Source of the DNA: Thalassia testudinum
Taxonomy: Eukaryota > Streptophyta > Magnoliopsida > Alismatales > Hydrocharitaceae
DNA: 64,000 nt
NCBI GenBank assembly: GCA_037157565.1
Contig: JAZHRO010000003.1
Location: 42,173,001-42,237,000, forward strand
Reading direction: 5' to 3'
Shown here: piece after piece, positions 4,908 to 58,667 of the stretch
Numbering within the stretch: the stretch's first letter is position 1
How the letters are laid out: each line of letters starts with the position of its first letter
Translations under genes and position numbers: made by a program
Notes under the pieces: generated by a model
Told to the model about the DNA's origin: nothing
Database searches by the model: none
What the model saw: only the letters and a program-made list of their open reading frames with translations

Positions 4908-4909
4908 AA

Positions 4910-4929
4910 TGGCACCGTTGCGGGGATGC
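4910..4929 (+). other. Primer binding site of T element (tRNA-Asp type)
   Basis: TGGCACCGTTGCGGGGATGC starts 2 nt after the LTR end. Plant tRNA-Asp gives TGGCGCCGTTGCCGGGGA, so this is a mutated match: G to A, and C to G. Confidence 0.7.
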
Positions 4930-5390
4930 AACGCCATTTTCTTTGATTTCAATCTTTTAAACTATCACTGACAAATCTCTCTCTACTTTGTTTTTGATGT
5001 GCAGGAGAACACGGAAGAAAAATAGGATCTGTGCACACAACGAGCGCGGCAAAGAAAAAGCAGGTGCACATCATCTCCCCTTTAGATTAGGTTTCCTTTT
5101 GAACCTTAGGAGTAGATTTACTTTCCGCAATTTCTTTTGAAAAAAAAATATATATTTATTCATTTTCATGAAGAAAAAAGAAAAAGAAATTAAATCTAGA
5201 TTAGGTTTCTTTTTCAATCCGAGGGTAGTTTGAGAAAGCAAAAAGAAAGAAAAAAAAAATATATATATATATTTGTGAAAATCCCTTGAAAAAAAAATTT
5301 GCAAAAGTGTTCAAAAAAAAAATTTTTTTTTTGGTGGAAGGCTTGATTTCAAACCCAAACCCTCTATAAAAAAGTCTTTCCACCATCTTC
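4930..5390 (+). repeat. T element leader remnant with 114-bp tandem duplication
   Basis: The first 100 bp resemble the leader of Q1, including a pyrimidine-rich GTTTTTGATGTGCAG followed by GAGAAC. From 5,083 a unit starting TAGATTAGGTTTC is repeated imperfectly at 5,197 (period about 114 bp). Each copy contains long A runs and a (TA)n stretch, and A/T tracts continue to 5,330. No coding sequence is seen. The unit ends abruptly at the P1 LTR stub. Confidence 0.55.
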
Positions 5391-5461
5391 TAACTATATT
5401 ACAACGCTTTATTTTAAAACACAATTTCGCCTTGTAAACATTTTGGTGTCGTTGTCGAGGA
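5391..5461 (+). mobile_element. P1 5' LTR stub and degenerate PBS
   Basis: ACTATATTACAAC from 5,391 to the terminal ...TTGTAAACA at 5,440 matches the last about 50-60 bp of the P1 3' LTR (ending at 29,952). Everything upstream of that in the 5' LTR is missing. The PBS at 5,444-5,461, TGGTGTCGTTGTCGAGGA, is the tRNA-Asp PBS with mainly C-to-T and G-to-A changes, consistent with deamination of methylated DNA. The truncation means P1 has no visible left target duplication. Confidence 0.75.
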
Positions 5462-6545
5462 GCAACAGGCAATTTAGAAATCTTGATTACAATTGCTGAT
5501 TTGGTACTAACTTGATATATCTCTTTTGTTGTGATTGTTTTAGGGGAGAAGATTCAAAGGAAGATGGCCGCACAGCAAACACGCCCGGGGCAGGTAATTT
5601 CTTAGTAGTCCCTTTTCTTAAGCCCCTCATTCTAAAAAGGAAAAAACATGATCAAAACAATTAGGGCTACATGTTTTCCATCTCTAGTTAATTCACCAAA
5701 GTTGCCTGATTTGATTTCAACAACAAATATTGATTTGTGCACCCATTTAAGGTACTTGGGCTACCACCTTCTTGCTTGAGCCCTAGATACCATATTTTGG
5801 TAACTAAATTCGACCAAAATTAGAGCCAAATTAAGGATTTCAATTTAGGGTTTTAGAGACATGCCTTCATAAGCAAGAATCGACTTTCCAAAAAGAGGTG
5901 TGCCTAAGCCTTGGTTGAAGAAACTTATTCAAGAAAACCCTAAAAATTCAGGCTCTTAATCTCACTTGAACCCTAAAAGAAAGGACTTAAAACTTCTCAA
6001 AGGGAAAATAGGTGAAGTTGACCCCCTTGTTGGGTCAACCAAAATTGTAATTATTTCACTTTTGCACTCAATACATCTAAAGTTCAAGTGAAATCTTAAG
6101 CACCTTTGCTCTTAAAATAAAACTGGTAGACTTAAGAGGTCAAGGTCCCCATTTTGGTCTACCTGGAATATCAGTGATGAGAGGTCGGGTGGGGGAAATC
6201 CTATAACTCGTGGGACGCTCTACCGTGTAGGGGTCTTTGCAAGACTCTCCCTCTCTGGCTGCCCAGGTATTTCTCAGGTAGACGGCTTTCTGACTAAGGG
6301 GTATCATCCACCCCAAACCTCTATAGTCATCAAAATTTTTGGGTGTCTTGATTGGGTCCAGCACATTCTACTCTCATCCAAACCATCGGTGCATGTTTGT
6401 TAGGAGGTCCTTAAGACCATCCTTGAGACCTCCTTTAATGATTCACTCTCGCCGAGGCCAGGCCTCGACATCCGTGTTTGTGCAGCAACCCCACCACATA
6501 GACATCTCTGATTCATCAGAACCCAATTCTCCTTCTTCCATCATC
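5462..6545 (+). other. P1 untranslated leader
   Basis: About 1.1 kb lie between the PBS and gag. A pyrimidine-rich TTGTTTTAG at about 5,536-5,543, followed by GGGGAGAAG, resembles a 3' splice site. The segment with CCCTAGATACCATATTTTGG (5,781-5,800) recurs in the leader of P2 at about 33,130-33,180, which allowed P2's deletion to be mapped. No coding sequence is apparent. Confidence 0.6.
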
Positions 6546-8455
6546 ATGGCACAACCAGTAGAAGAAGAGAATAATCTTGAGAACCAACTCCAGCGCTTGA
6601 ATGATTTATATCAAGCCTTTGTAAACCCGCCGCAGCGTCCTATGATGCGAGATCGCTACAATCCCACTGCGGTGGTGATCGAACCTCGAGTCCAAATCCC
6701 AGCTAGAGGTCCTGATTCTGAACTCATGCCCAACATGATTCATGCTATTCCAAAGTTTCATGTGCTTAATTCCAAGGATCCCTTCCAACACATCAAACAA
6801 CTCAAGCATCTGGCCCAGACCTTCGGGTCAGATGTCCAAAATCGAGATACTCTTCTCATGAAGATGTTCTCCTTCTCTCTCATGGGCAAAGCAGCTCATT
6901 GGTATCAGACTCAAACATGTCCAATCAACACATGGGTTGAACTACAATCTGAGTTTTTGAAAAAGTTCTTCCCAGTTGGTCGGACGTGACACCAGATTAC
7001 ACACTTCACCCAGCAATCTGGAGAACCTCTTCATGAAGCATGGGACAGTTTCCTGGATCTCATGTGAAAGTGCCCCCATCATGGAGTTCCTAAATGGGAA
7101 CAAGTCAGTCTTTTTACCAGGGACCCCGTGAAGATATCTACTTATTCATCAATGCAACCTGCAGAGGAAATATCATGGGTGAAGACACTGTGTGGGAGAT
7201 TCTAGAGAATATGTGTGAAAACTCCATCAATAATGACTCCATGGGCTTATTCTATCGGATGAAAGCCCACGCATTAACGAATCCAAGGGGAGCACATGAG
7301 ACGCAGGGCTTGTCCACACCCGTCGACTTGGAATTGATGGCCAGTCGGTTGGACAAGGTCTCTATCATCGACAAGAAGGTGGATAAGCTGACTCAACATC
7401 TGCAGCGAGCCACCTCTGTGCAAAACCCGTTTGCACAACCGCCTTTTGGGAGGGAAGCTATGCATAACATCTATCACCAATCTTCTCAGTGGATGGACCT
7501 GTATCCACCCCCGTCTGACTCTAGGACTGGAGGAAACTCCGATCCAACCTACTCTAGTTGGGGGAAATCTGAACCCTCATACTCTGACTTTCCTGAGGTT
7601 CCTCAAACCTACGAGGACCTCAACGCCATCCAGAATGACCCATTTTCTAATACCTATAACCCTGGATGGCAGAATCATCCCAACATCCTGTGGGTGGGAA
7701 ATAATCAGAATCAAAGACCACCATATCAACCTCGTCCACAAGATCCTCGTCCATATCAGCCGCCTCAGCCTCGGCCCAACCCTACCCATCAATCTGGGCC
7801 AACTCAAATAGATCAAATGACTCTTATCCTTCAGACTCTGGCTGACATTCAGAAGACAAATGCGGCTATGCAAAAATAGCACAAGGATGAGATCACAGAG
7901 GTACGAAATCAACTCGCCTAGATGGCGAATTCCCGCCAATCTGGCACACTCCCTTCGCAACCTCTACCGAATCCAAATAACGTGCCGAACCAAAGGTGTG
8001 TTATGAACCCAAATCCAGGCCAAGCCCACATGATTTATCAAGCCCCTTCTATTCCATCACCCGACGGGATGGAAGCTTCGACATCGTATGTGAGATTTCA
8101 GCAGCAGCCACCCATTTTACCAACTTCGAACCAAAGCCAGGCAAGGCTGAATTTTGTAACAACCCGTAGCGGCAAAACAACATAAGACCCACATTATCCA
8201 AGCCACTTTCAGCCTGGTAGTAGCCCAAGCCCTAGGATAGTTATCCAGGATACCCCTGTCCCAGAATAAGAACCTGGACCTATTCTAGAGGAACCATCCA
8301 AGGTTCCATTTCCCAAGGCCTTAACCAAGGGAAAGAGGACAAATAAACTCGTGGCTCCTGAGGAGGATCTGGTCAAGCTCTTTGAACAGGTCCATATAAA
8401 CATCCCCTTGATGGATGCAATCCGCTACATACCGGCATACGCATGATTTCTGAAA
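6546..8455 (+). pseudogene. gag: P1 gag, broken
   Basis: This encodes the capsid polyprotein of an Athila-type element. The likely start is the ATG at 6,546 (MAQPVEEEN), although the frame is open upstream from 6,339. The conserved retrotransposon gag core is visible: PKFHVLNSKDPFQHIKQL, LLMKMFSFSLMGKAAHWY and FLKKFFPVGRT. The frame is cut by TGA at 6,987-6,989 and resumes in another frame from 7,094, with TAG at 7,877 and at about 7,919, then TAA at 8,183. The C-terminal half is P/Q/N-rich (PYQPRPQDPRPYQPPQP). No CCHC zinc knuckle is seen. The gag tail runs into protease in one frame, as expected for a gag-pol fusion. It is not functional as it stands. Confidence 0.85.
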
Positions 8456-13726: not shown

Positions 13727-13799
13727 TGTTGGGAACACCATCATGAGCCCTAACTAGCTCATTTTGACCCAGAAAAGAGAACAAAAGCTCATACATAAC
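13727..13799 (+). mobile_element. P1 3' LTR, left piece
   Basis: It starts TGTTGGGAACACCATCATGAGCC. The same start, in minus orientation, ends the P2 LTR at 36,194 and the P3 LTR at 50,716. It is cut at 13,799 by Q1; the LTR resumes at 27,264 after the duplicated target ATAAC. Confidence 0.9.
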
Positions 13800-14169
13800 T
13801 GTTTTCACCTCAAAACACGCCTGTAATAACGCCTTCTTGTGCTATTTTCTAGCATTAACATTGCATAATAGGATCCTGTAATCGCATTTGTAAAAACGCT
13901 TGCATGCATGCATTTAATCAAGAGAAGAAGAGGAGTGAAACAATGGCTTGCATAGTTACATTTTATCTCAAGTGCCTCCTTGCAAATTCCACCTCTTTTT
14001 ATTTTTTTCTCTCTTGATTTCTTCTTTTCTTCTTCCCGCGGCTGCACTTCTTCCCGCAGCAGCTGCATGCATTTACTCCACGTCACTTCTCCCTGCCAAC
14101 GCCGCTCCCTACAGCTGCAACTCCCGCACCCTCTCCCTGTTGCAGCCGGCATACCACTCTCTCCTCCTC

Positions 14170-14190
14170 TATAAGAAGCTGCAGCTTCTT
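14170..14190 (+). promoter_or_regulatory. Q1 TATA box overlapping an 18-bp palindrome
   Basis: TATAAGAAG (14,170-14,178) sits in the position of TATAAAAAG in the Q solo LTR (44,051). It overlaps the perfect palindrome AAGAAGCTGCAGCTTCTT (14,173-14,190), repeated exactly in the 3' LTR at 25,313-25,330 and imperfectly in Q2. Promoter role is inferred from position. Confidence 0.55.
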
Positions 14191-14305
14191 CCTCGCGAGA
14201 AGGGCGGCTGCACAAAAACAAAAAAAACCCACAGCCACCTCTTCCACCGTCTTCCCCTCCCATACGTCGGCCCTCCGTCGAGGAGACACCCGACGAGCAG
14301 GAGAA

Positions 14306-14334
14306 CCCACTGTGGTGCTCACCACCACAGTGGG
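14306..14334 (+). other. Q LTR leader hairpin, 12-bp stem
   Basis: Arms CCCACTGTGGTG (14,306-14,317) and CACCACAGTGGG (14,323-14,334) enclose the loop CTCAC. It is about 136 bp after the TATA box, so it would lie in the transcript leader. It is also present at 25,446-25,474 (identical), 58,091-58,119 (same stem, loop CACAC on the minus strand) and 44,205-44,234 (stem kept with two paired changes). Confidence 0.9.
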
Positions 14335-14929
14335 AACACCACCGCCCAGCTCTTCAACGAGCAGGTGGGCGTGGTGTCTTCTTTTCTTTTCATTTTCATC
14401 TCCACGCCATTACTGCCGCTTCAAGGTCCGAAGATTGAAGCAGCAGCAGCAGCAGCCAAACCGCGGCGGCGGCAGCAGCAGCAGCTCCCCTCTCTCCTCT
14501 GCGACCTTCCCAGCAGGCGCTCAGCCCTCCGTGCGCACCTGCAGGGCACTTCTCCGCTCCGTCCTCTGCTCTGTCGCCTCTGCGCTTGCACCCGCGACCG
14601 GCCGCTGCGCACACTGCAGCGGCCGGCCAGGCCCTCTCGCCGCCCCCTGCCAACCTCCGCACCCCTTTGCGACCGCCCGTAGACCCTCCTCCACGTTCGC
14701 TCCTCCGCACATCGCCCGCTCATCGTCTTCGCGTCGGCCTGCAGAAACCCTACGCGAAGGCGCGCGCCCGCACCTGCCGTTTCCAGACGTCCGCTGCCTT
14801 CTCCAAACAACGCGACTCCAGACGTCCGCCGCCGTGAGCAGACATCTTAACTCGCGCGTCCGCTCTCTCTCTGTCTCCAGCTCTCTCTCTGCTGATCTCT
14901 CCCGCCCGCTCCCGCTCTCTCTCACGTAT

Positions 14930-15430
14930 TCTCTCTCTCTCTCTTTTTTACTCACTAATAGACACACACTCACAGCAACTCACACACACACACATTCACC
15001 GACGCACACACACCTATACCAACACATACACACACACTCACACACTTATAGTAACATTTATATAAATATATATATACATACATACATATATATATATATA
15101 TACATAGTATATCTATATAGTTATGTATACATACACATATATATAATATATATACATATATATATATATATCTACTTATATATACATCTATATACTTATA
15201 CATATACTTATATATATATAGACATATATACTTATATACATATATATATATACATATCTATATACATATATATATACATATATATAGTAATATATATATA
15301 TATACTTATATACATATATATAGACATATATATCAATATATATATATCTATACATATATAACTATACATTTATATATATATATAGATATATTTACTTATA
15401 TACATACATATGTACATATATTTTCATGTT
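14930..15430 (+). repeat. Microsatellite series (CT)n-(CA)n-(TA)n
   Basis: CT-rich sequence (14,860-14,945) passes into CA-rich (14,960-15,045) and then TA-rich with interspersed C and G (15,056-15,420). The same order occurs in the other three Q LTRs: 25,970-26,565; 44,960-45,600; and, reversed, 57,000-57,560. Reading frames here translate to YIYI/HTHT repeats and are not genes. Confidence 0.9.
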
Positions 15431-15444
15431 ATTTATTATACGCT

Positions 15445-15488
15445 GTATCGCGGGAATATCTGCACCAGTTGCTGATATTCCCTGATAC
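15445..15488 (+). other. Two-part stem-loop in Q LTR with conserved loop
   Basis: The inner stem is GGGAATATC (15,452-15,460) with GATATTCCC (15,474-15,482). The outer stem is GTATC with GATAC, separated by a small asymmetric bulge (GC against T). The 13-nt loop contains GCACCAGTTGCT. It sits just after the TA-rich tract. All four Q copies keep it; the 3' LTR has one G-to-A change in the inner stem. Confidence 0.85.
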
Positions 15489-16120
15489 ACGCGTACAAAA
15501 AAGCATGGTCCCATACATCATCCATCCTCCATCCACACTCCACGCGGCACCTAGTCGTGTTGGTTCGTCTCTCTAGACGTTGACTGACTCGACATAGTGC
15601 TACACTCCATCGTCACCTCCACCCCCACCCCTTTATATATATACTACATATAAATATATATCTATAGCTACTATATTTACTTTCTATCTGTTAGCTTCCT
15701 TCTTAGTAAAAAGATAAGAAAGGTATAAAAGTGAAAAGATAATCTTTGATTTGCAGGTACCCCGTCTTGCGAGTAGCAAGGCGTGTTTTAAAACTCTATT
15801 TTGGCTAAAAGCCAAGGACACAATTTTGAGGGTGTGCCTCAAGAACAAGGATTACCATAAAAAACCTAAATAAGAAAAACACCAAAAACACAATAAACGA
15901 ACGGAAGAGACGCGTTTTAAGGAAAACGTAGAAACTCGACTTTAACCCCACTTCCCTGAGTTCGACCCTGGGCTTGAAAGTGATAAGATAAAATCAATTA
16001 GGCCAGGTTAAAAATTTTGTAAAGAGATGGTTAGGTCCAAATTAGGTTAACCACTATACACATTTCAACGATAAAAATATCATATTAACAACCTATTCGG
16101 GCCGACCCATCACACTTTTC

Positions 16121-16138
16121 TGGCGCCGTTGCCGGGGA
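16121..16138 (+). other. Q1 primer binding site (tRNA-Asp)
   Basis: TGGCGCCGTTGCCGGGGA is an exact complement of the 3' end of plant tRNA-Asp including CCA. It starts 8 nt after the LTR end (spacer CACTTTTC). It is the only unmutated PBS in the window. Confidence 0.93.
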
Positions 16139-17606: not shown

Positions 17607-19572
17607 ATGGCTGCACGCCCACCCCCAAATCCCGAGGGAGGAAACCGCCCTCAGAACCCACCAGGTTGTGGAGCCTTAGATCCAATAACCCGCCTCCAAG
17701 CCCAAATGGAAATGTATAATGAGCAAATCGAAGCCATTCGGGAAACATTGGAGGAGATGCAGAACCCTCCCGAACGGGAGGAGCCTAGGTCTCTTAGCTC
17801 TTATCAGAATCCCGCTGCTACAGAGACCATAGGACAAATTTGGGTCCCCATGGGCAGGGACGACTTTGAATTAAAACCAAACATAATTGGCCTAATCAAT
17901 TTTCACTTTCATGGTCTTGCAAGTGAAGACCCATTTCTCCACTTGGAAGACCTAACCCGACTTGCTGAAACCGTTAAACCAAGAAATGTCGGGTTATCTA
18001 TAGTCCTCATGAAGATGTTCCCGTTTTCATTACGGGATAAAGCGTCGCAATGGTTACGCACCCTTGGGAGAACCATCCACTCTTGGGAAGAGATGCGAAC
18101 AGCGTTTCTCAAGAAGTTCTTCCCAATCGGGCAGACCAATGCGCTTCGCCGTGCTATCACTTCATTTACGCAACAAAACGGTGAAAATTTCATGAGGCAT
18201 GGGAGAGGTATAACAACCTCCTCAGGAAGTGTCCGCACCACGGTCTGCCTAAGTGGCATATAGCCTAGATTTTCTACTATGGGCTAAATGAGACTTTGAA
18301 GCAGATTGCAGACACTTCCTGCGGAGGGAACTTTATGAATAAAGACGAGAATGGAGCATTCGAGCTGTTTGAAAATATGAGTGAAAACTCGATGAACAAT
18401 GCTTCCATTGTCGCCTTTAATCGTACCAGCCAGCCCCGAAATGTCCACGAAGTTGACATGGGACCCTCCCATTCATCCACTGATCTAAGCCTTATTGCAC
18501 AAAAACTGGATGAAGTCTCTGTCATGCACAAGAAGCTGGACGAGCTTCTGGCCAACCCCGCCCAATCTATGGCAAACACCACCTCTTCACCACTTCGTCA
18601 CAATCCAAGTTCTTCTAATACCAGGCTTATCCCGAGAAACCCCATTAGACCTTCCTTACCGAGTGTCGCGCCAAGCGACTCAGTAAGTCATGTGGAACTG
18701 GCTCTGCGACCCAGTATTTCGACACGGAGGACCAACCCTCCGTGTGCTCGGACGCATATCTACATGCGGATGCATCTTCTGGCATAGAAGACGCTTGCGC
18801 CCTGGGGAACAACCCGTTCTCTGCCACTTATAACCCAGGGTGGCATAATCATCCGAACTTCGCATGGTCCAACAACCCGCAGCGCCAAAACCCCGCGGGT
18901 GGACCAATGCGACCGTCCGCACCCGTCATCCCAAGGGTCCAGTTTAATCCTATGGCAAATCCGCCATCAGGCCCTTGCATACCACAAACTGAACACGCAT
19001 CAAGCCCTCTTGACAAATTGATGCGAATGATGACAGAAATGTCAAAGTGCCATGAAGAGAACATGACCTCTCTTCAGCACCAATTGGCGCAGCAGAACGC
19101 CGAGATCAGTCAACTACGCATGGCGACTCGATCTCAGGGCACTCTTCCTGCCCAACCTGTTCCAAACCCACGAAATTTCATACCCCGTGGTTCTCAACCA
19201 CAGGTACGACCTTCTCAGGGACAGGTTAATCAAGTTCTGCAAGCTCCGAGCATTCCACCGGGATTTCAGGCTAATCCTACTGTAGCACAACACTCTTATG
19301 TCCCCATTGCAAGCCCTCCTCCACCGTATGATCCCACTGGACCCGCATCGTCCAATGCTATCACTACAAGGAGCGGTAAGCAGACCGTCGATCCGCCTCG
19401 ACCTGATCCTGGCCCGTCTGCTTCTTCGCCCTCTCATTCGGGATGCATACCGCATTCACGAGAGGATGATGCACCAAAACTTGTGCCATAATCAGTCCCA
19501 TTCCCTGAGGCTCTACTAAGGGAGCCAAAAGGCAAAAAGAAAAATACACAGGCCTTTGACAACCTACGTAAT
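17607..19572 (+). pseudogene. gag: Q1 gag, two frameshifts
   Basis: The capsid polyprotein starts MAARPPPNPEGG at 17,607. The core is FHFHGLASEDPFLHLEDL, LMKMFPFSLRDKASQWL and FLKKFFPIGQTNALRR. A probable 1-nt loss near 18,188 shifts the frame; the expected continuation is readable in the next frame, with TAG at 18,266-18,268. A second shift near 18,690 moves to the frame that contains NNPFSATYNPGW and the P/Q/N-rich tail. TAA at 19,489-19,491 is the last stop; beyond it the frame is open into pol, so gag and pol were originally one frame. No CCHC knuckle is seen. Confidence 0.88.
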
Positions 19573-22500
19573 TTGTTCAGGGATGTAGAAATCAAGGTAC
19601 CCCTGCTCGAGGCAATCGACCACATACCTACTGTCGCTCGATTTTTCAAAGACTACACAACACCCAAGCGACAGTCAAAGAAGACTAAGAATCCGATGGT
19701 TCTCTCGCCTCATGCGAGTTGTGCTATACTGTCAAACTTACCCCCGAAGCAGAAAGATCCGGGCACACCACTGATTTCCTGTAGCATCCAAGGCTGCAGT
19801 TTTAACCGTGCCCTACTTGATCTAGGATCTTCCATCAATCTCATACCGACCATCATGCTCGAAAAATTTTCCTTGGGAAATCTGAAACCCACCCCTGTCA
19901 CGTTACAGTTGGCAGATCGTTCTGTCAAAATCCCGAAGGGTGTGGTGGAAGACGTGGTGGTTAGGGTCAACAATCTCTGTTTTCCTGTTGACTTTCTTGT
20001 TTTAGATATGGAAGTTCCTAGTTCACTTTCTGATTGTCCGATCATCCTCGGTCGACCTTTCTTGGACACAGCCCGCGCCCACATCGACTGCGAGTCGGGG
20101 TGTATTGAGATTGCCGTTGGATCTGAGAAGCTCAAGCTTAACATATTCAAGGCAGCCAAGAACTTTGATTGCGGTTGCATCGAGGATGACACGTCTGACG
20201 AGGACATGGCCGTCAACGCATGTATCAGACTAATTGGGACCTATTCAGACTGCTGCGGATTACCTATAAACACTGATGACTGCCTGACCAACACATACTG
20301 TGACGTTCCCCAATCCCTCCCTTGTCCAGTACCTTCTCCTGGCCAGACTTCTGATAAGGTTTTCTCCGCTTCCCATACCTCGTGGTCTGAGTCATATCCG
20401 GGCTACTCACCGTCGGTCCACACTCATGAAGACCGAATTGCCCTTTCTTCCCCGCCAAATCAGGAGGATTTACAAATCCACACTAGGACCTTGAGCCCAT
20501 ATACTTCTCACTGGGGCTATTCATTTTTGGATCCATCTATCCAAGAAGCCCCTCTTCTTGGCCAATCTGAAGGCCAGTTTCTTCCTCCTAACTTGTTCTC
20601 CTACCCGTCTGGGACACTCTCGTCCCAAGAAATGCCAGATCCTTCCCCATCCACTCCCGAGCTAAAAGTGCTGCCTAATACACTCAAGTATGTTTTCCTG
20701 GGACCAAATGAAACGCTCCCTGTAATCATCAGTTCAAAATTAACCATGGAGCAGGAGTGCAAACTAACTAAGGTCCTCCTAGAACACAAGGCAGCTATTG
20801 GATGGCCTTTATCAGACTTATTTGGTATTAGCCCCTCCTACTGCACTCATCGTATATATACAGAGGAGGAGGCTCGACCTTCTCGCGAGATGCAGCGACG
20901 TCTCAACCCTAACATGCGGGAGGTCATTAAGAAGGAAATCATTAAGTGGCTAGATGCGGGTATAATCTACCCGATCAGTGATAGCCCCTGGGTGAGTCCG
21001 ATTCACGTTGTGCCCAAAAAGGCAGGACTCACCATCCGTGTCAATGACAGGGGCGAATCCATCCCTACATGGAGTCCTACATCTTGGAGAGTGTGTGTAG
21101 ATTATAGGAAACTCAATGCTGCAACCAAGAAAGATCACTTCCTGCTACCATTTATTGACCAAATCCTGGAGCGGTTAGCGGGAAATAAATTTTTCTACTA
21201 CCTAGATGGATTCTCAGGATATAACCAGGTGGCAATAAACCCCCGAGACCAAGAGAAAACCACTTTTACCTACCCTTTCGGCACCTTCACCTTTAGAAGG
21301 ATGCCGTTCGGACTTTGTAACGTGCCAGCAACTTTCCAAAGATGCATGCTGGCGATATTTCATGACATGGTGGGTGACTTTCTCGATGTCTTCATGGATG
21401 ACTTCTCAGTCTTTGGACCATCTTTCGATGAATGTCTTGCCAACCTGACTCGCATCCTTAGGAGATGTATTGATGTAAACCTCGTGCTTTCCTGGGAAAA
21501 AAGTCATTTTATGGTGCACGAGGGAATTGTTCTGGGACATATCATCTCCGATAGAGGTATCGAGGTTGACAGAGCTAAGCTCGACGTCATTGCTAATTTA
21601 CCTGTGCCTGATTCTGTCAAACGAATCCGCTCCTTCTTGGGACACGTCGATTTCTATAGGAGATTCATCAAAGACTTCTCCAAAATTTCTCGACCCTTAA
21701 CTCATCTCCTATCAACCGACGTGCCCTTCGACATGGGCCCCGACTGTATACAAGCATTCATGCAGCTGCGTAACGCTGTCACCAAGGCCCCTGTTCTCCA
21801 GCTGCCTGATTGGTCCCTCGACTTTGAACTTATGTGTGACGCTTCAGACCTTGCAGTCGGAGCCATCCTGGGACAAAGACGCGATAGACACCCCTTCGTG
21901 GTATACTACGCCAGTAAGACGTTGGACGAAGCCCAGCGTAATTATACTACCACTGAAAAGGAACTACTGGCAGTCGTCTTTGGGCTGGAAAAATTCCGTT
22001 CTTACCTTCTGGGCTCTCACGTTATTGTTTTCACTGATCATGCGGCCATTCGCCATCTCATGCACAAGAAGGATGCCAAGCCTAGACTGATTCGTTGGAT
22101 CCTTCTGCTCCAGGAATTTGACATTGAGATTCGCGATAAGGCTGGAGCCCAGAATGTTGTGGCTGATCACCTTTCCAGACTGGACCCTGACCATATTGGA
22201 CTTACTCTGCCAATTAATGAAATTTTTCCTGATGAGCACCTATTGGCAATAAATGTGGCAAGTGGACTGTGGTATGCCGACATTGCCAATTACCTTGCTT
22301 CTGGATCTCTTCCACATGGCTGGCCTAAAAACCAGCGCGAGCGTCTCATGGCAGAAGTAAAGTATTATTTCTGGGATAATCCACTTCTTTTTCGGATAGG
22401 TGCTGATCAAATCATCCGTCGCTGTATTCCTGACAGTGAGTTCCCCAGTGTGCTATCCTTCTGCCACGATCAGGCTTGTGGAGGCCATTTCTCTGGGAGG

Positions 22501-23556
22501 AAAACTGCAGCCAAGGTGTTGCAGTGCGGTTTCTTTTGGCCCTCCCTTCACAAGGACACACACACTTATGCTAAGCATTGCACTAGGTGCCAGTCGTTAG
22601 GGTCAATGGCACGTCGTGACATGATGCCCTTGCAACACATCCTAGCTGCGGAAATCTTCGACATCTGGGGAATTGACTTCATGGGTCCCTTTCCTCCATC
22701 CAACGGCTTCGAATTCATCCTCGTGGCCGTCTACTATGTTTCGAAATGGATCGAGGCTATTCCCGCGCGTCGTGCTGACCATGTTATCTCCACCCGATTC
22801 GTCAAGGACCACATCTTTGCGCGTTTTGGGATCCCTCGGGCCATTATCTCGGATGGAGGAAGCCACTTTACCCATTCTTCTTTTCGGGCACTTCTGAGGA
22901 GGTTCAGAGTCCACCATCATATCGCATCCCCGTATCATCCTCAGACGAACGGCTAGGCGGAAGTGTCAAACCGGCAAATCAACCAGATTCTCCAGAAAAT
23001 GGTTCGGCCTGACGGTAAGGGTTGGTCCGACAAGCTGACTGACGCACTTTGGGCGTATCGGACCGCCTTCAAGGCTCCCCTTGGTATGTCTCCATATAGA
23101 ATTGTTTACGGGAAGCCTTGTCATTTGCCCGTGGAGTTGGAACATCGCGCTTATTGGGCAGTTCGCCAATGTAACCTCGACCCAGACTTGTGTGGTCGAG
23201 AAAGGAAACTCCAACTCCAAGAGCTGGAAGAGCTCCGTCGTGAAGCCTATGATTCTGCTCTAACCTTTAAACAGCGCACTAAGGCTTTTCGTGACAACCA
23301 TATTCGGCGGAAGGAATTTGAGCCATCTCAGCAAGTTTGGCTCTATAATGCCCGACTCAAATTCTTTCCTTGGAAATTGAAGTCCAAATGGACTGGTCCT
23401 TTCCTGGTCTCAAGACCATTCCCCAATGGGGCCATCGAGATCGAAGATCCCAAATTTGGGCGTAAATTTACGGTCAATGGGTAGCGTTTGAAACCCTATC
23501 TGACTCATGAACCTGCCCCCGTTGGAGAAACCGTTGCCTTGCTGGAGGGTAACTAA
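19573..23556 (+). pseudogene. pol: Q1 pol (PR-RT-RNase H-IN), two late stops
   Basis: A long open stretch (to 22,956) covers protease (ALLDLGSSINLIP, Asp codon at 19,819), RT about 20,870-21,600 (FMDDFSVF, MDD codons 21,394-21,402), RNase H about 21,820-22,190 ([30 protein letters not shown]) and the integrase HHCC knuckle and core (WGIDFMGPF; catalytic Asp codons at 22,675 and 22,852). TAG at 22,954-22,956 falls two codons before the catalytic Glu (22,960). A second TAG is at 23,482-23,484; the original end is TAA 23,554-23,556. In AVYYVSKW, Tyr replaces the Asp seen in Q2 (AVDYVSKW). RT could be intact, but integrase is not. Confidence 0.93.
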
Positions 23557-24900: not shown

Positions 24901-24939
24901 TTTTGCTAGGGACTAGCAAAAGATAGGCATGGGGGTATA
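24901..24939 (+). promoter_or_regulatory. Q1 pre-PPT hairpin and polypurine tract
   Basis: Arms TTTTGCTA (24,901-24,908) and TAGCAAAA (24,914-24,921) enclose the loop GGGAC. Then comes AGGCATGGGGGTATA (24,925-24,939) directly before the 3' LTR. Confidence 0.85.
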
Positions 24940-27258
24940 TGTTTGCACCTCAAAACACGCCTGTAATAACGCCTTCTTGTGCTATTTTCTAGCATTAACA
25001 TTGCATAGTAGGATCCTGTAATCGCATTTGTAAAAATGCTTGCATGCATGCATTTAATCAAGAGAAGAAGAGGAGTGAAACAATGGCTTGCATAGTTACA
25101 TTTTATCTCAAGTGCCTCCTTGCAAATTCCACCTCTTTTTATTTTTTTCTCTCTTGATTTCTTCTTTTCTTCTTCCCGCGGCTGCACTTCTTCCCGCAGC
25201 AGCTGCATGCATTTACTCCACGTCACTTCTCCCTGCCAACGCCGCTCCCTACAGCTGCAACTCCCGCACCCTCTCCCTGCTGCAGCCGGCATACCACTCT
25301 CTCCTCCTCTATAAGAAGCTGCAGCTTCTTCCTCGCGAGAAGGGCGGCTGCACAAAAACAAAAAAAACCCGCAGCCACCTCTTCCACCGTCTTCCCCTCC
25401 CATACGTCGGCCCTCCGTCGAGGAGACACCCGACGAGCAGGAGAACCCACTGTGGTGCTCACCACCACAGTGGGAACACCACCGCCCAGCTCTTCAATGA
25501 GCAGGTGGGCGTGGTGTCTTCTTTTCTTTTCGTTTTCATCTCCACACCATTGCTGCCGCTTCAAGGTCCGAAGCTTGAAGCAGCAGCAGCAGCTCCCCTC
25601 TCTCCTCCGCGACCTTCCCCGCAGGCGCTCAGCCATCCGCGCGTGCCTGCAGGGCACTTCTCCACTCCGTCCACTGCTCTATCGCCTCTGCCCTTGCACC
25701 CGCGACCGGCCGCTGCGTGCACTACAGCGGCCGGCCAGGCCCTCTCGCCGCCCCCTGCCAACCTCCGCACCCCTCCGCGACCGCTCGCAGACCCTCCTCC
25801 ACGTTCTCTCCCCCGCGCATCGCCCGCTCATCGTCTTCACGTCGGCCTGCAGAAACCCTACGCGAAGGCGCGCGCCCGCACCCACCGTTTCCAGGCGTCC
25901 GCTGCCTTCTCCGGACGACGCGACTCCAGACATCCGCCGCCGCGAGCAAACGTCTTAACTCGCGCGTCCGCTCTCTCTGTCGCCCGCTCTCTCTCTCTGC
26001 TGATCTCTCCCGCCCGCTCCCGCTCTCTCTCTCTGCTGATCTCTCCCGCCCGCTCCCGCTCTCTCTCACGTATTCTCTCTCTCTCTCTTTTTTACTCACT
26101 AATAGACACACACTCACAGCAACTCACACACACACACATTCACCGACGCACACACACCTATACCAACACATACACACACACTCACACACTTATAGTAACA
26201 TTTATATAAATATATATATACATACATACATATATATATATATATACATAGTATATCTATATAGTTATGTATACATACACATATATATAATATATATACA
26301 TATATATATATATATATCTACTTATATATACATCTATATACTTATACATATACTTATATATATATAGACATATATACTTATATACATATATATATATACA
26401 TATCTATATACATATATATATACATATATATAGTAATATATATATATATACTTATATACATATATATAGACATATATATCAATATATATATATCTATACA
26501 TATATAACTATACATTTATATATATATATAGATATATTTACTTATATACATACATATGTACATATATTTTCATGTTATTTATTATACGCTGTATCGCGGG
26601 AATATCTGCACCAGTTGCTAATATTCCCTGATACACGCGTACAAAAAAGCATGGTCCCATACATCATCCATCCTCCATCCACACTCCACGCGGCACCTAG
26701 TCGTGTTGGTTCGTCTCTCTAGACGTTGACTGACTCGACATAGTGCTACACTCCATCGTCACCTCCACCCCCACCCCTTTATATATATACTACATATAAA
26801 TATATATCTATAGCTACTATATTTACTTTCTATCTGTTAGCTTCCTTCTTAGTAAAAAGATAAAAAAGGTATAAAAGTGAAAAGATAATCTTTGATTTGC
26901 AGGTACCCCGTCTTGCGAGTAGCAAGGCGTGTTTTAAAACTCTATTTTGGCTAAAAGCCAAGGACACAATTTTGAGGGTGTGCCTCAAGAACAAGGATTA
27001 CCATAAAAAACCTAAATAAGAAAAACACCAAAAACACAATAAACGAACGGAAGAGACGCGTTTTAAGGAAAACGTAGAAACTCGACTTTAACCCCACTTC
27101 CCTGAGTTCGACCCTGGGCTTGAAAGTGATAAGATAAAATCAATTAGGCCAGGTTAAAAATTTTGTAAAGAGATGGTTAGGTCCAAATTAGGTTAACCAC
27201 TATACACATTTCAACGATAAAAATATCATATTAACAACCTATTCGGGCTGACCCATCA
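24940..27258 (+). mobile_element. Q1 3' LTR
   Basis: 2,319 bp, TGTTTGCACC... to ...GACCCATCA. The outer parts match the 5' LTR with a handful of point differences. The GC-rich block (25,560-25,960) differs much more, by roughly 30 substitutions over about 430 bp plus a missing CAG/CGG-rich segment. At about 25,993-26,062 a 36-bp unit (GCTGATCTCTCCCGCCCG...) is duplicated in tandem, whereas the 5' LTR has one copy. TATA is at 25,310-25,318; the leader hairpin is at 25,446-25,474. Confidence 0.95.
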
Positions 27259-41531: not shown

Positions 41532-41568
41532 TTTTGCTAGGGACTAGCAAAAAGTAAGCATGGGGGTG
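41532..41568 (+). promoter_or_regulatory. R1 pre-PPT hairpin and polypurine tract
   Basis: Arms TTTTGCTA (41,532-41,539) and TAGCAAAA (41,545-41,552) with loop GGGAC are identical to Q1. They are followed by AAGTAAGCATGGGGGTG up to the LTR start. Confidence 0.85.
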
Positions 41569-43302: not shown

Positions 43303-43678
43303 TAGGGTTATATGAGTTAAAGAATGTATCATTCTGTATGGCGTGGAGATCCTTGCAAGTCTGAGGAGCTCCAGAGTAATTAGAGTATGAGGGTTCAGAG
43401 ATCCCCAACTAGAGCAAGATGGTTCAAGGTTTCCTTCGAAACCAGGGTCAAACGGGGTTGGATACGCATCCATCCCCTGATATGCATGGTGGTGAATGTT
43501 ATGCATGGCCTCCCTTCCTAAGGGCAGATGTGCATACGTGTTTTGTTGAGAGGAGGTGGCTCTCTGTAACTGGGGAGTCAATTCGTCCACCTTCTTCTCA
43601 ATAATAGAGACCTTATCCAGGTAACTAGCCACCAACTCCAAGTTGGCGGATGTGGATAGGTCAGGTGTTTCGTGTGCC
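43303..43678 (-). pseudogene. gag: P3 gag, C-terminal piece
   Basis: Minus strand: DKVSIIEKKVDELTPQLQRA and LGREAMHNIHHHAYQGMDAY match P1 gag, then a Tyr/Pro-rich tail ending at the R1 LTR in the region of the NTYNPGW motif. It is contiguous in sequence with 46,289 onward once the solo LTR is removed. Frame is lost near the tail. The rest of P3 (protease onward) is beyond R1 and not seen. Confidence 0.8.
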
Positions 43679-46288
43679 TGATTGCACCGCAAAAATACAC
43701 CTGCAATTGTGTCGTCTTGTGCTATTTCCTAGCATTACCAATGCATATTAGGTTTCCATAGTCGCATTTGTAAAAATACATGCATGCATGCATTTAATTG
43801 AGAGGGGAGGAGAGTGAATAAAATGGCCTCGTAATTCACATTTTCCTCAAGTGCTGCCTTGCAAAATTTCCATCTTCATTTTTATTTCTTTTTTATTTTT
43901 GACTTTCTTCCCACGGCTGCAATGCATGGCAACCTCTTCCTCCTCGTGCCATGCTCTGCAACACCTCTCCCTGCCAGCCGCATGCAGCCTCTCCCTGCAA
44001 GCCATGCCCAAGCCATGCACAGCTAGGGCATGGCCGTGCATGCGTTCTTCTATAAAAAGAGGGCGGCTTCTTCCTTTGCAAGGGGCCTAGTCCTCCACAC
44101 AAAAATCCAATAGCAACTTCTCCTCTTCTCCAGGTTGTCCCCTCCCCTCTCCCTCCATACGCAGGCCCTCCTCCTCTGAGGAGACACTCTGCGAGCAGGA
44201 GCACCTCACGGTGGTGCACAACCACCACCGTGAGTCCACCACCACCCAGCTCACCAAAGAGCTAGTGGGCGTGGTGGTTCTTTCCCTGTTTCTTCGTTTG
44301 AAGCACCTCCGCCATTGCCACAAAGATTCAAGCTTTGAAGCTCAACCGGCCACTGCACAACCCTGCAACAGCAGGCCGAGCTCCACAGCAGCAGCAGCGC
44401 ACGTAGGCACCAACGCGCGCCTGCAGGTGCCCTTGCCTCCCTCTCCGCGTGCCCTGTCACGCTCTCTCTTCTGCTCGCAACCAACTGACGCATTCCTCTT
44501 CCACGTGCGTGCCAGCCACAAGCCACCCGCACTCACAGCACCGTCCGCTCCCAGTTGCGCGACTCGCCCGGCCACTGTAGCCACTGTTCACACGTTTTTG
44601 CGGAACACTGTGGCTACAATGGGGTGACCGGTAAGTTTCTCACTTATCCGATCACCCAGCGCGCCGCAACCGGCCAGCTCCCGCGTCCCGCACCGAGTTC
44701 GCTCCAGCGCCCGCCCACGCGTCTGCGTGCGTCCTCTGCCAACGCCTGCCCACTTCAGCGTCTTCGCCCGCATACGCTCACCCGCCCGCATGCGCCTGCG
44801 TGAGCCCGCTCCAACCCTTCATGCAGCGCTGTGCGCTGCAATTCCACTCTCCATGCTCACTCCCTCCCAGCGCGCACGTCCTCGCGCACATACGCACCTG
44901 CGCGTGAAGCCATCAGACGACGCCCTAAGTGCTGTAGATGCCTTAAACCCTCCAACCTTCACTCTCTCTCTCTCTCGCACAGCACTCTCCCTATCTCTCT
45001 CTGCAAAAACACATACACACACATTCACACTCCCATACACACACACACCTACCTATACACTATATATATATATATATACTTATATCTATACATATAATGG
45101 TATCTATATACTTAAGTATTAGTATACATACATACATACATATATATATATATACTTATATAAATATATATATGCATATATCTATATATATATATATATA
45201 TATATTAGAACCTATATAACTAATTATTAGTATACATATATACATATACTTATATATGTATACATATATATATACATATATATACACATAAACTTATATA
45301 TATATATATACACAAATATACATACATATATACAAATATATCTATAACTATATATACATACATATATATATATATATACATTTATATACATATATCTATA
45401 CATACATATATTACTATATACATACACATATATAGATATACATCTATATAGTATTATATACATACATATACATACATATATATATACACATATATATATA
45501 CATATATAACTACATATATATACCTATATATTTATAACCATATATATATAAATATAAACATATAGATATATTTACATATATACACATATATATTTTCACA
45601 TTATTTACCATACGTGGTATCGCGGGAATATCCGCACCAGTTGCTGATATTCCCCGATACACGCATACAAAAAGCGTGTTCGCATTCATCTTCCACCATC
45701 CATCCTACACTCCATGCGGCACCTCATCCTGTTGGTTGCGTCTTTCTAGAAGATGACCAACTCGACACCGTGCTACACTCTATCTCAACCTCCACCCCTA
45801 CCCCTTTATACATATATAGTATATACATATATATCTATACTATATTTACCTTATTTCTATTTCTCTTGCATGCCCATAAAAAGATAAAAAATATATATAA
45901 AAGAGACAAGATAATCTTTGACTTGCAGGTACTCCGTCTTGCGAATAGCAAGACCCATTTTGGAACCCTGATTTGGCTCAAAGCGAAGAACCTAATTTTG
46001 AGGGTGTGCCTCAAGGACCAAGATTATCAGAAAAAAATCTTAAATAGAAAAACACCAAAACCACAATAAACGAACGGAAGAGATTCGTTGTAGGAAAGGC
46101 ATAGAAACTTGACTTGTAACCCCACTTCCCTGAGTTCGACCCTGGGCCTAAAAGTGACCAAGATAAAATCAAGTAGGCCAGGTTAAAAATTTTGTAAAGA
46201 GATGGTTAGGTCCGAGTTAGGTTAAACACTATACACACTTCAACAATAAAATCACCATATTAACACACCTATCCGGGCACGACCACCA
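43679..46288 (+). mobile_element. Diverged Q-family solo LTR
   Basis: 2,610 bp, TGATTGCACCGC... to about ...CGACCACCA. It follows the Q LTR layout throughout: U3 start, TATAAAAAG (44,051-44,059), leader hairpin (44,205-44,234), GC-rich block, CT/CA/TA microsatellites, stem-loop (45,617-45,660 region), and U5 motif (46,132-46,146). P3 gag flanks both sides in continuous order, so it is a solo LTR left by LTR-LTR recombination. The right edge is uncertain by a few bases and I cannot confirm a target duplication (left flank GTGCC). Confidence 0.88.
44205..44234 (+). other. Q solo LTR hairpin with paired substitutions
   Basis: Arms CTCACGGTGGTG (44,205-44,216) and CACCACCGTGAG (44,223-44,234), loop CACAAC. 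Compared with Q1 (CCCACTGTGGTG / CACCACAGTGGG), stem positions 2 and 6 changed on both sides: C:G became T:A, and T:A became G:C. Confidence 0.88.
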
Positions 46289-56301: not shown

Positions 56302-58628
56302 TGATGGGTCGGCCCGGATAGGTTGTTAATATGATGTTTTTATCGTTGAAATATGTATAGTGGTTAACCTAATTCAGACCTAACCATCTCTTTACAAAAT
56401 TTTTAACCTGGCCTAATTGATTTTATCTTGTCACTTTTAGGCCCAGGGTCGAACACAGGGAAGTGGGGTTAAAGTCGAGTTTCTACGTTTTCCTTAAAAT
56501 GCGTCTCTTACGTTCGTTTATTGTGTTTTTGGTGTTTTTCTTATTTAGGTTTTTTATGATAATCCTTGTTCTTGAGGCACACCCTCAAAATTGTGTCCTT
56601 GGCTTTTAGCCAAACAGAGTCCCAAAACAAGTCTTGCTACTCGCAAGACGAGGTACCTACAAGTCAAAGATTATCTTTTCTTTTTTATGTATTTTTTTTA
56701 TCTTTTTACTAACAGAAAAGCAAATAGACAGAAAGTAAATATAGTATGTATATATATATATATGTAGTATATATATAAAGGGGTGGGGGTGGAGGTGGCG
56801 ATGGAGTGTAGCACTATGTCGAGTCAGTCGACGTCTAGAGAGACGCAACAAACACGACTAGGTGCCGCGTGGAGTGTGGATGGAGGATGGATGATGTATG
56901 GGACCACGCTTTTTTTGTACGCGTGTATCAGGGAATATCAGCAACTGGTGCAGATATTCCCGCGATACAGCGTATAATAAATAACATGAAAATATATGTA
57001 CATATGTATGTATATAAGTAAATATATCTATATATATATATAAATATATAGTTATATATGTATAGATATATATATATAGATATATATGTGTATATATATG
57101 TATATAAGTATATATATATATATTACTATATATATGTATATATATATGTATATAGATATGTATATATATATATCTGTATATAAGTATATATGTCTATATA
57201 TATATAAGTATATGTATAAGTATATAGATGTATATATAAGTAGATATATATATATATATATATTATGTATATGTATATATATTATATATATGTGTATGTA
57301 TACATAACTATATAGATATACTATGTATATATATATATATATGTATGTATGTATATATATATTTATATATGTATATTACTATAAGTGTGTGAGTGTGTGT
57401 GTATGTGTTGGTATAGGTGTGTGTGCGTCGGTGAATGTGTGTGTGTGTGCGTTGCTGTGAGTGTGTGTCTGTTAGTGAGTAAAAAAGAGAGAGAGAGAGA
57501 ATACGTGAGAGAGAGAGAGCGGGAGCGGGCGGGAGAGATCAGCAGAGAGAGAGCAGGCGAGCGAGAGATCGCGGACGCGCGAGTTAAGACGTCTGCCGCC
57601 TCCGGCGGACGTCTGACGCCACGTCATCTGGAGGCGGAGGCAGACGTCTGCAGACGGCGGGTGCAGGCGCGGCTTCGCGTAGGGTTCCTGTAGGCGTGCG
57701 CGAAGGCGACGGGCGAGCGAAGGCGTGGAGGAGCGAGCGTGGAGGAGGTCTGCAGGTGGTCGCGGAGGGTCGCGGAGGAGGGCAGGGGGCGGCGCGAGGC
57801 CGTAGCCGGCCGCTGCAGTGCGCGCGGCGGACGGCTACAGGTGCAACTGCGAGGCGGACAGAACGGAGACGGAGGCGGGGAACGCCCTGCAGATGCGTGC
57901 GGAGGCGGTGAGCGACTGCGGGGACGGTAGCGGAGGAGCGGGAGGACCTGCTGCTGCTGCTGCTGGGCTACTGCTACCATGGCTTCAAGCTTCGAAGCTT
58001 GGAGCGGCGGCAATGGCGTTAAAGAGAAAAAAATGAAGCGAGGGAATGCACCACGCCCACCGGCTCGTCGAAGAGCTGGGCGGTGGTGCTCCCACTGTGG
58101 TGGTGTGCACCACAGTGGGTTCTCCTACTCGCCGGGTGCTTCCTCGACGGAGGGCCGACGTATGGGAGGGGAAAGCGGTGGAGAAGATGGCTGCGGGTTT
58201 TTTTTGCTGCAGCAGCCCCTCTTACGAGGATGAAGCTGCAGCTACTTATAGAGGAGGAGAGAGTGGCGTGCTGGCTGCAGCAGGGAGAGGGTGTGCGAGT
58301 TGCAGCTATAGGGAGCGGCGTTGGCAGGGAGAAGTGACGGGAAGAAGTGCTGCGTGGCTGCTGCATGCAGCTGCGGGAAGAGTGCAGCTGCGGGAAGGAG
58401 AGAAAAGAAGAAATCAAGAGGAAAAATAAAAAGAGGGTGATTTTGCAAGGAGGCACTTGAAGAAAAATGTAACTATCCAGGCGATTGTTTCACTCCTCTT
58501 CCTCTCTTGATTAAATGCATGCATGCAAGTGTTTTTACAAATGCGATTACAGGATCCTATTATGCAATGTTAATGCTAGAAAATAGCACAAGAAGGCGTT
58601 ATTACAGGCGTGTTTTGAGGTGCAAACA
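56302..58628 (-). mobile_element. Q2 3' LTR
   Basis: 2,327 bp; on the minus strand TGTTTGCACCTC... to ...GGGTCGACCCATCA-like end. It has TATAAGTAG on the minus strand (58,242-58,250), the leader hairpin (58,091-58,119), a GC-rich block (57,590-57,960), TA/CA/CT microsatellites (57,000-57,560), the stem-loop (56,925-56,968) and the U5 motif (56,442-56,460). The GC-rich block differs most from Q1. Confidence 0.93.
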
Positions 58629-58667
58629 TATACCCCCATGCCTATCTTTTGCTAGTCCCTAGCAAAA
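58629..58667 (-). promoter_or_regulatory. Q2 pre-PPT hairpin and polypurine tract
   Basis: Minus strand: arms TTTTGCTA and TAGCAAAA with loop GGGAC (58,667-58,647), then GATAGGCATGGGGGTATA to the LTR start at 58,628. Identical to Q1. Confidence 0.88.

What the first reader, a model, noticed from the sequence alone, without database searches (positions are those of the whole stretch)
14306..14334. Leader hairpin in Q LTRs kept by compensatory substitutions
A perfect 12-bp stem lies about 130-155 bp after the TATA box in all four Q LTRs. In the diverged solo copy (44,205-44,234) two stem positions changed on both arms (C:G to T:A and T:A to G:C), so pairing is preserved. In Q2 the stem is unchanged but the loop differs (CACAC against CTCAC). 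Stem kept while loop drifts, plus paired changes, is the signature of a selected structure, possibly in the RNA leader (packaging, translation or dimerisation).
Basis: partly seen in the sequence, partly recalled or inferred. Interest (0 to 1): 0.75.

Follow-up and report, generated by a model that had tools for sequence, protein, structure and literature searches.

The report
Conserved three-hairpin leader in plant retrotransposons
A large family of plant jumping genes carries, near the start of its predicted RNA, a cluster of three hairpins whose paired bases change together as the family evolves, which points to a working RNA signal whose exact job is still unknown.

Summary
The hairpin is real and beyond chance. 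It is the middle one of three tandem hairpins (SL0 14257-14303, SL1 14306-14334, SL2 14336-14377) near the predicted RNA 5' end of a Ty3/gypsy-type plant LTR retrotransposon. The four window LTRs give three independent sequences, since two belong to one element. Copies were therefore collected from the 4.26-Gb genome, mostly with probes that leave SL1 out. Between majority states of four lineages, 27 of 30 pair differences keep pairing, 21 two-sided; inside lineages 178 of 193 changed cells are one-sided. Against a tree-based null a covariation score gives p=0.001 for SL1 and SL0's middle stem and 0.002 for SL2; a cruder two-sided-type count is not significant for SL1 or SL2 alone. An SL2 pattern has 27,040 matches genome-wide against 1 for a reversed control. 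Pol-deleted relatives keep the module. No Rfam family matches it. By folding z-score alone it is not the most extreme LTR stretch. Best reading: a selected leader RNA element, most likely a Gag-recognised packaging signal; that function is inferred and the strand is undecided.

The parts
13800..16112 (+). Q1, 5' LTR of the first element
24940..27258 (+). Q2, 3' LTR of the same element, 95% identical to Q1
43678..46284 (+). Q3, diverged Q-type LTR, 69-82% identical to the others in the main aligned parts
56302..58628 (-). Q4, 3' LTR of a second element that runs off the right end of the window
14170..14175 (+). TATA-like box of Q1; transcription start inferred near 14200, not mapped
14257..14303 (+). 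SL0 in Q1: outer stem CTCC/GGAG, middle stem CGTCGG/CCGACG (covaries), inner stem CTCC/GGAG
14306..14334 (+). SL1 in Q1: the reported 12-bp hairpin, loop CTCAC
14336..14377 (+). SL2 in Q1: 16 pairs, 6-nt loop, 3-nt bulge; closing pair mainly A-U, G-C or C-G by lineage
25397..25517 (+). SL0-SL1-SL2 module in Q2 (SL1 25446-25474)
44153..44277 (+). SL0-SL1-SL2 module in Q3 (SL1 44205-44234)
58048..58168 (-). Module in Q4, read on the minus strand (SL1 58091-58119, loop CACAC)
15892..15897 (+). AATAAA, candidate poly(A) signal, present in 16 of 16 aligned LTRs; if used, the module lies in R
16121..16138 (+). Primer-binding site, 8 bp after the 5' LTR
19492..22956 (+). Open frame with aspartic protease, reverse transcriptase, RNase H and integrase domains
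   Evidence: searched in two pieces

Best explanation
SL0, SL1 and SL2 form one structured module in the leader (predicted R region) of the retrotransposon's RNA, and source elements are under selection to keep it folded. Most likely it is a cis-acting site, bound by Gag, that marks the element's RNA for packaging; if it lies in R it stands at both RNA ends. Shown: SL1, SL2 and SL0's middle stem covary between lineages, and pol-deleted elements keep the module. Inferred: that it acts on the sense strand, that it lies in the transcript, and that packaging is the step it serves. My split: selected nucleic-acid structure 0.9, acting as leader RNA 0.75, packaging as main function about 0.4.
For: De novo consensus folding of 6 sequences from five lineages finds all three hairpins; 7 of 42 pairs have two-sided changes, against 0 or 1 when partners are slid by 1-3 columns; shuffles reach the covariation score in 0 of 500 and the count of two-sided pairs in 4 of 500. 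On 96 distinct of 101 sequences with a tree from unpaired columns, the covariation score has p=0.001 for SL1, 0.001 for SL0's middle stem, 0.002 for SL2 and 0.001 for all. SL1 pair 6 is A-T in 49, T-A in 39, G-C in 10, mismatched in 2 and gapped in 1 of 101; SL2's closing pair is C-G in 55, G-C in 21, A-U in 16, G-U or U-G in 4, mismatched in 4 and gapped in 1. Between majority states of four lineages 27 of 30 differences keep pairing. Six pol-deleted elements (12 LTRs) average 100% identity to Q1 in 14280-14339 and 96% in 14340-14399, against 47-75% in the four 60-base windows upstream and 87-88% in the two downstream (found with a probe from 14280-14360). Q1 has no ATG in 14200-15120 against a mean of 5.5 in 500 shuffles, and 14 CAT. 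BARE2, a parasitic barley element, keeps conserved dimerization and packaging signals (PMC3735527, passages).
Against: No transcript data: start and poly(A) sites are inferred. By folding z-score the module is not the most extreme part of the LTR: nine of 73 defined window-strand tests, all within 15000-15539 and mostly in AT-rich repeats, exceed it (one search had mis-sorted these). Antisense folds with lower energy in 6 of 7 modules, and G-U against A-C states do not clearly favour the sense strand. The count of pairs with two-sided types is not significant for SL1 (p=0.18) or SL2 (p=0.64) alone; 87 of 500 shuffles reach the number of further pair types. SL0's inner stem does not covary significantly (p=0.31) and Q4-type sequences carry an inherited C-A mismatch there. 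In the L073 lineage SL1 is altered in 5 of 5 sequences: a 3-nt bulge in 3, a shorter stem in 1, an extra base in 1. ATG depletion is clear in Q1 and L048 (P 0.000 and 0.002), weaker in Q2 (0.016), and not significant by count in Q4 (0.12) and Q3 (0.70). Nothing tests packaging directly; the module lies about 1.7 kb upstream of the PBS, unlike compact retroviral leaders (recalled).
Confidence: 0.58

Rival explanations
1. The module is an RNA leader structure, but its job is translational: stable hairpins near the cap hold back scanning and so separate translated from packaged RNA.
For: SL1 alone folds at about -22 kcal/mol, about 100 nt from the inferred start. The leader is ATG-free for 921 nt in Q1 and 539 nt in Q3. 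BARE uses distinct RNA pools for translation and replication (PMC3735527, abstract start and passages).
Against: The hairpins are also kept in pol-deleted elements, whose own translation I did not assess. In Q1 no ATG lies between the inferred start and the stems, so there is no short upstream frame as in known shunts (shunts recalled).
Confidence: 0.25
2. The module serves in R for first-strand transfer or for poly(A) site control, roles that retroviral TAR and poly(A) hairpins have (recalled).
For: A conserved AATAAA at 15892 would put the module in R, present at both RNA ends. Retention in pol-deleted copies fits as well.
Against: It lies about 1.5 kb from the candidate poly(A) signal; the R boundaries are not mapped.
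Confidence: 0.2
3. The dyads act as DNA: symmetric protein-binding sites or cruciforms in the promoter-proximal LTR.
For: SL1 is a perfect inverted repeat and the pairing evidence does not decide the strand.
Against: Three adjacent dyads of different sequence keep pairing, with internal loops and a bulge at fixed places. U-G at SL0 middle pair 3 and G-U at pair 6 are majority states of whole lineages. Three base-pair types at SL1 pair 6 do not look like a sequence-read half-site.
Confidence: 0.1
4. The compensated changes are mutational: template switching within near-palindromes copies one arm onto the other, without selection.
For: SL1 differences between lineage majorities are all Watson-Crick. 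Pair 6 G-C and A-T differ by transitions at CpG sites on both arms.
Against: Inside lineages SL1 holds 31 unrepaired one-sided mismatches and 10 G-U cells, so correction is not pervasive after insertion. G-U states in SL0 and SL2 are not expected from arm copying; bulges and internal loops persist.
Confidence: 0.08

Closest known systems
Retroviral 5' leader stem-loops (TAR, poly(A) hairpin, DIS and psi)
   Same: Tandem stable hairpins near the 5' end of the genomic RNA (papers seen only as search listing with abstract starts; details recalled)
   Different: About 1.7 kb upstream of the PBS rather than near it; no palindromic loop common to all lineages; plant element; function untested
Ty3 gRNA dimerization site DS/PAL6 and structured 5' end (PMC11381356, passages)
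   Same: Ty3/gypsy group; structured 5' end carrying cis-acting signals
   Different: Ty3's site is the 6-nt palindrome CUGCAG in the apical part of a short hairpin; SL1 loops here are CTCAC, CACAC, CACAAC and CCACG types
BARE1/BARE2 dimerization and packaging signals (PMC3735527, passages)
   Same: A plant LTR element in which a parasitic subfamily keeps dimerization and packaging signals, as the pol-deleted Q relatives keep the module
   Different: BARE is a copia element (recalled); no sequence or position comparison was made here
Stem-loop conservation in long R regions (PMC3601003, passages)
   Same: That paper links residual conservation in longer R regions to stem-loops
   Different: It names gammaretroviruses, class III/spumaviruses and lentiviruses; the word Athila has 0 occurrences in its text

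Membership tests
Ty3/gypsy LTR retrotransposon | Order protease, reverse transcriptase, RNase H, integrase between two LTRs with a PBS | tested here: met
Ty3/gypsy, Athila/Tat-like branch | No chromodomain after integrase; PBS TGGCGCCGTTGCCGGGGA as recalled for this branch | tested here: inconclusive
   No chromodomain hit in the pieces searched; PBS found, but its branch assignment is recalled; no tree made; protein hits carry no branch names
Retroelement packaging signal (psi) | Required for selective packaging, bound by Gag | not testable with these tools
   no experiment; inferred only
Kissing-loop dimerization site | Palindromic apical loop conserved in the family | tested here: not met
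   GTGCAC at the top of SL1 stands in Q3, Q4 and L067p but is GTGCTC in Q1 and GTCCAC or similar in the L073 type
Selected nucleic-acid secondary structure | Compensatory change beyond expectation from relatedness | tested here: met
   covariation score; one cruder count not significant for SL1 and SL2 alone
Known Rfam family | Match at the gathering score | tested here: not met
   12 matches with E up to 1, all below gathering, none overlapping 14257-14377

The most novel reading that the evidence does not exclude
The module is a packaging signal shared by autonomous and pol-deleted plant retrotransposons: one RNA structure, kept by compensatory change through several lineages, through which non-autonomous copies capture their helpers' particles. 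That would make it the structural key to how these elements multiplied in a 4.3-Gb genome.
Probability: 0.3. Interest if true: 0.8.

Novelty: new member of a known kind. Interest (0 to 1): 0.57.

Why it matters
Cis-acting RNA signals of plant Ty3/gypsy elements are poorly known (my knowledge; the BARE paper says little is known of packaged RNA outside BARE), although such elements fill large plant genomes. A covarying module of about 120 nt with thousands of natural variants is a ready target for Gag binding and RNA probing. It can also help find related LTRs and study how non-autonomous elements are mobilised.

Tried and rejected
Viral contigs: 1 and 38 pattern matches; the loci on disk were compared with the Q LTRs and only a 25-base match in L001 appeared, inside what looks like an ordinary gene (my reading). 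Rfam: no family. Dimerisation through the SL1 loop: palindrome not kept in all lineages. 'Stem kept while loop drifts': not seen. L066 looked like a Q LTR without the module; I read it as the first part of the L067 plus-strand LTR, interrupted by an insertion. A hairpin at 14598-14626 is kept in Q1, Q2, Q4 and most pol-deleted copies but not Q3, so it is left out. Strand choice by energy and by G-U against A-C: undecided. Ranking by folding z-score: one search seemed to put the module on top, but an undefined value had spoilt its sorting; redone, nine of 73 tests in 15000-15539 exceed the module's best (-8.47). Counts of paired against unpaired states at SL1 pair 6 over the whole genome were planned (and repeats) but did not complete.

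Rows left out: the tree test used 96 distinct of 101 sequences. L153-L156 came later and are only. Each probe search scored 40 of its candidates: 40 of 701, 1840 (67), 311 (77), 2305 (84) and 1478 (103). Besides the source copy itself, I fetched 39 of 39 listed Q3-type places, 20 of 39 Q4-type, 20 of 39 L067p-type and 4 of 39 L073-type. Of the 101, the 14 Q1-type and pol-deleted sequences L040-L053 were found with a probe that includes SL1 and parts of SL0 and SL2, so their likeness there is partly by selection. SL0 lies in the other probes, so its constancy inside those sets is partly by selection too.

Full report
What was checked. Random sequence of the same composition gives essentially none. 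Q1 (13800-16112) and Q2 (24940-27258) are the LTRs of one element, Q4 (56302-58628, minus) is the 3' LTR of a second element, and Q3 (43678-46284) is a diverged relative. So the window gives three independent observations. The two paired changes in Q3 have a chance of 0.0007 under random placement. The element encodes protease, reverse transcriptase, RNase H and integrase; the best protein relatives are largely unnamed or plant proteins at about 50-72% identity.

A larger structure. Folding 111-126 bases around each stem gives a second hairpin directly downstream in all four copies; z-scores are -5.0 to -6.5 and no shuffle is as stable. Its closing pair is A-U in Q1, G-C in Q4 and C-G in Q3. 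Comparison with diverged copies showed a third hairpin, SL0, upstream. RNAalifold on six sequences finds SL0, SL1 and SL2 without being told, and on 12 sequences again, except SL0's inner stem, which that alignment places differently. Sliding the partners by 1-3 columns drops pairs with two-sided change from 7 to 0 or 1. Of the shuffles, 0 of 500 reach the covariation score, 4 of 500 the count of two-sided pairs, and 87 of 500 the number of further pair types.

A control that went against me. Among 73 defined window-by-strand tests along the LTR (four sequences, 40 column shuffles each, one further test undefined), nine are more extreme than the module's best (-8.47): all lie in 15000-15539, mostly in self-complementary AT-rich repeats. 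The module is therefore one of several structured parts of this LTR; its case rests on covariation.

Copies from the genome. The window lies in a 4.26-Gb genome. The next 200 kb to the right were read without selection and gave four leaders: L054 minus, L067 plus, L067 minus and L073 plus; L054 minus is, as I read it, the other LTR of the Q4 element. Probes ending before SL1 then gave Q3-type, Q4-type, L067p-type and L073-type places, of which 39, 20, 20 and 4 were fetched. Q3 type, with Q3: 21 of 40 have a perfect stem; pair 6 is A-T in 28, G-C in 10, A-C in 1, gapped in 1. L067p type: pair 6 A-T in 20 of 21. Q4 type: 21 of 21 perfect, nearly identical and so uninformative. L073 type: SL0's inner pair 4 is U-A in 5 of 5, but SL1 is altered: a 3-nt bulge in L073p, L154 and L155, a shorter stem in L153, an extra base in L156.

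Test against relatedness. On 96 distinct of 101 sequences a tree was built from 142 unpaired columns, and each stem column was evolved independently on it with its own number of changes, 1000 times. On a covariation score SL1 and SL0's middle stem exceed every simulation (p=0.001), SL2 has p=0.002 and SL0's inner stem p=0.31. On the cruder count of pairs with two-sided Watson-Crick types, SL0's middle stem has p=0.003 and all together p=0.013, while SL1 (0.18) and SL2 (0.64) are not significant alone. This is not R-scape, the number of lineages is small, and the null is simple.

Source elements against dead copies. Between the majority states of four lineages 21 differences are two-sided and pair-keeping, 6 one-sided and pair-keeping, and 3 break a pair, all at one SL0 pair in Q4. 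These are counts over six lineage pairs, so one event can count several times. Within lineages, 178 of 193 changed cells are one-sided (92 mismatches, 68 G-U, 18 Watson-Crick) and 15 two-sided, 10 of them at SL1. I read this as selection for the fold in active elements and decay after insertion.

Retention without pol. Six elements with leaders about 6.3-6.5 kb apart lack the internal parts 1500-2456, 3189-4065 and 4543-7514, which hold the protease, reverse transcriptase and integrase domains. Their LTRs are about 80% identical to Q1, but 14280-14339 averages 100% and 14340-14399 96%, against 47-75% in 14040-14279 and 87-88% in 14400-14519; the last 500 bases of the LTR are also about 89-96%. 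They were found with a probe from 14280-14360, so the 100% is partly by choice.

Position. A TATA-like box precedes the module, no ATG occurs in Q1 from 14200 to 15120, and AATAAA at 15892 is present in 16 of 16 LTRs aligned. If these are used, the module is in R, near both RNA ends. None of this was measured. ATG depletion is not general: Q4 and Q3 do not show it by count. The strand is not settled: antisense energies are lower in 6 of 7 modules.

Abundance. An SL2 pattern with up to two mismatches occurs 13,494 times forward and 13,546 reverse, against 1 and 0 for the reversed control pattern. Listed rows include a further loop type (TTTCGT and similar) whose SL1 was not examined.

What it most likely does. 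A selected leader structure kept by elements that have lost their pol domains points to a step done in trans by shared proteins, most simply packaging by Gag. The closest precedent is BARE2 (PMC3735527, passages). Strand transfer, poly(A) control and translation control remain open. Kissing-loop dimerisation through SL1 is not supported, because the palindrome is not kept in all lineages.

Literature. In the listings I saw no title or abstract start that describes such a module. Most subscription papers are not held, and three papers were seen in passages only, so this absence is weak evidence.

Noticed in passing
24901-24921, 41532-41552, 58647-58667 (minus): A 9-bp perfect hairpin TTTTGCTAG-GGA-CTAGCAAAA stands 18 bases before the 3' LTR, next to a purine-rich tract, in both Q elements and, it seems, in a second family whose pol DNA is about 64% identical. 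PMC3601003 (passages) calls for a search for a related kind, hairpins that hold the polypurine tract in the loop.
   Followed up: partly
L048-L053: A pol-deleted group with the same internal parts missing in all six copies fetched, sharing ends and leader module with the Q element.
   Followed up: partly
15432-15502: A stretch of about 71 bases that is about 79% complementary to itself, after the AT-rich repeats; the sense window 15420-15539 has z -9.75, more extreme than the module.
   Followed up: no
14598-14626, 25706-25734: A further GC-rich hairpin (10-11 bp) in the leader, kept in Q1, Q2, Q4 and most pol-deleted copies, not found in Q3.
   Followed up: partly
42535-42563: A perfect 12-bp hairpin about 965 bases into what looks like another family's 3' LTR starting near 41571; possibly an analogous leader hairpin.
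   Followed up: no
54977-55003: Another perfect 12-bp stem with a 3-base loop, outside the Q LTRs.
   Followed up: no
15039-15460, 26185-26600, 45040-45600: AT-rich short tandem repeats with strong inverted symmetry inside the Q LTRs; in Q1 they give low-scoring microRNA-like Rfam matches below gathering.
   Followed up: no
13727-13803 and 27271-27874: Sequence flanking the Q1/Q2 element matches successive parts of a stretch at 36194-35501 on the other strand, so the element seems to be nested in another LTR.
   Followed up: partly
14018-15361: A frame open for 447 codons runs through the Q1 leader, which has no ATG in any frame from 14200 to 15120.
   Followed up: no
L073 and the rows: At least two further lineages of the module exist: the L073 type and, from SL2 alone, a TTTCGT-loop type.
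   Followed up: partly
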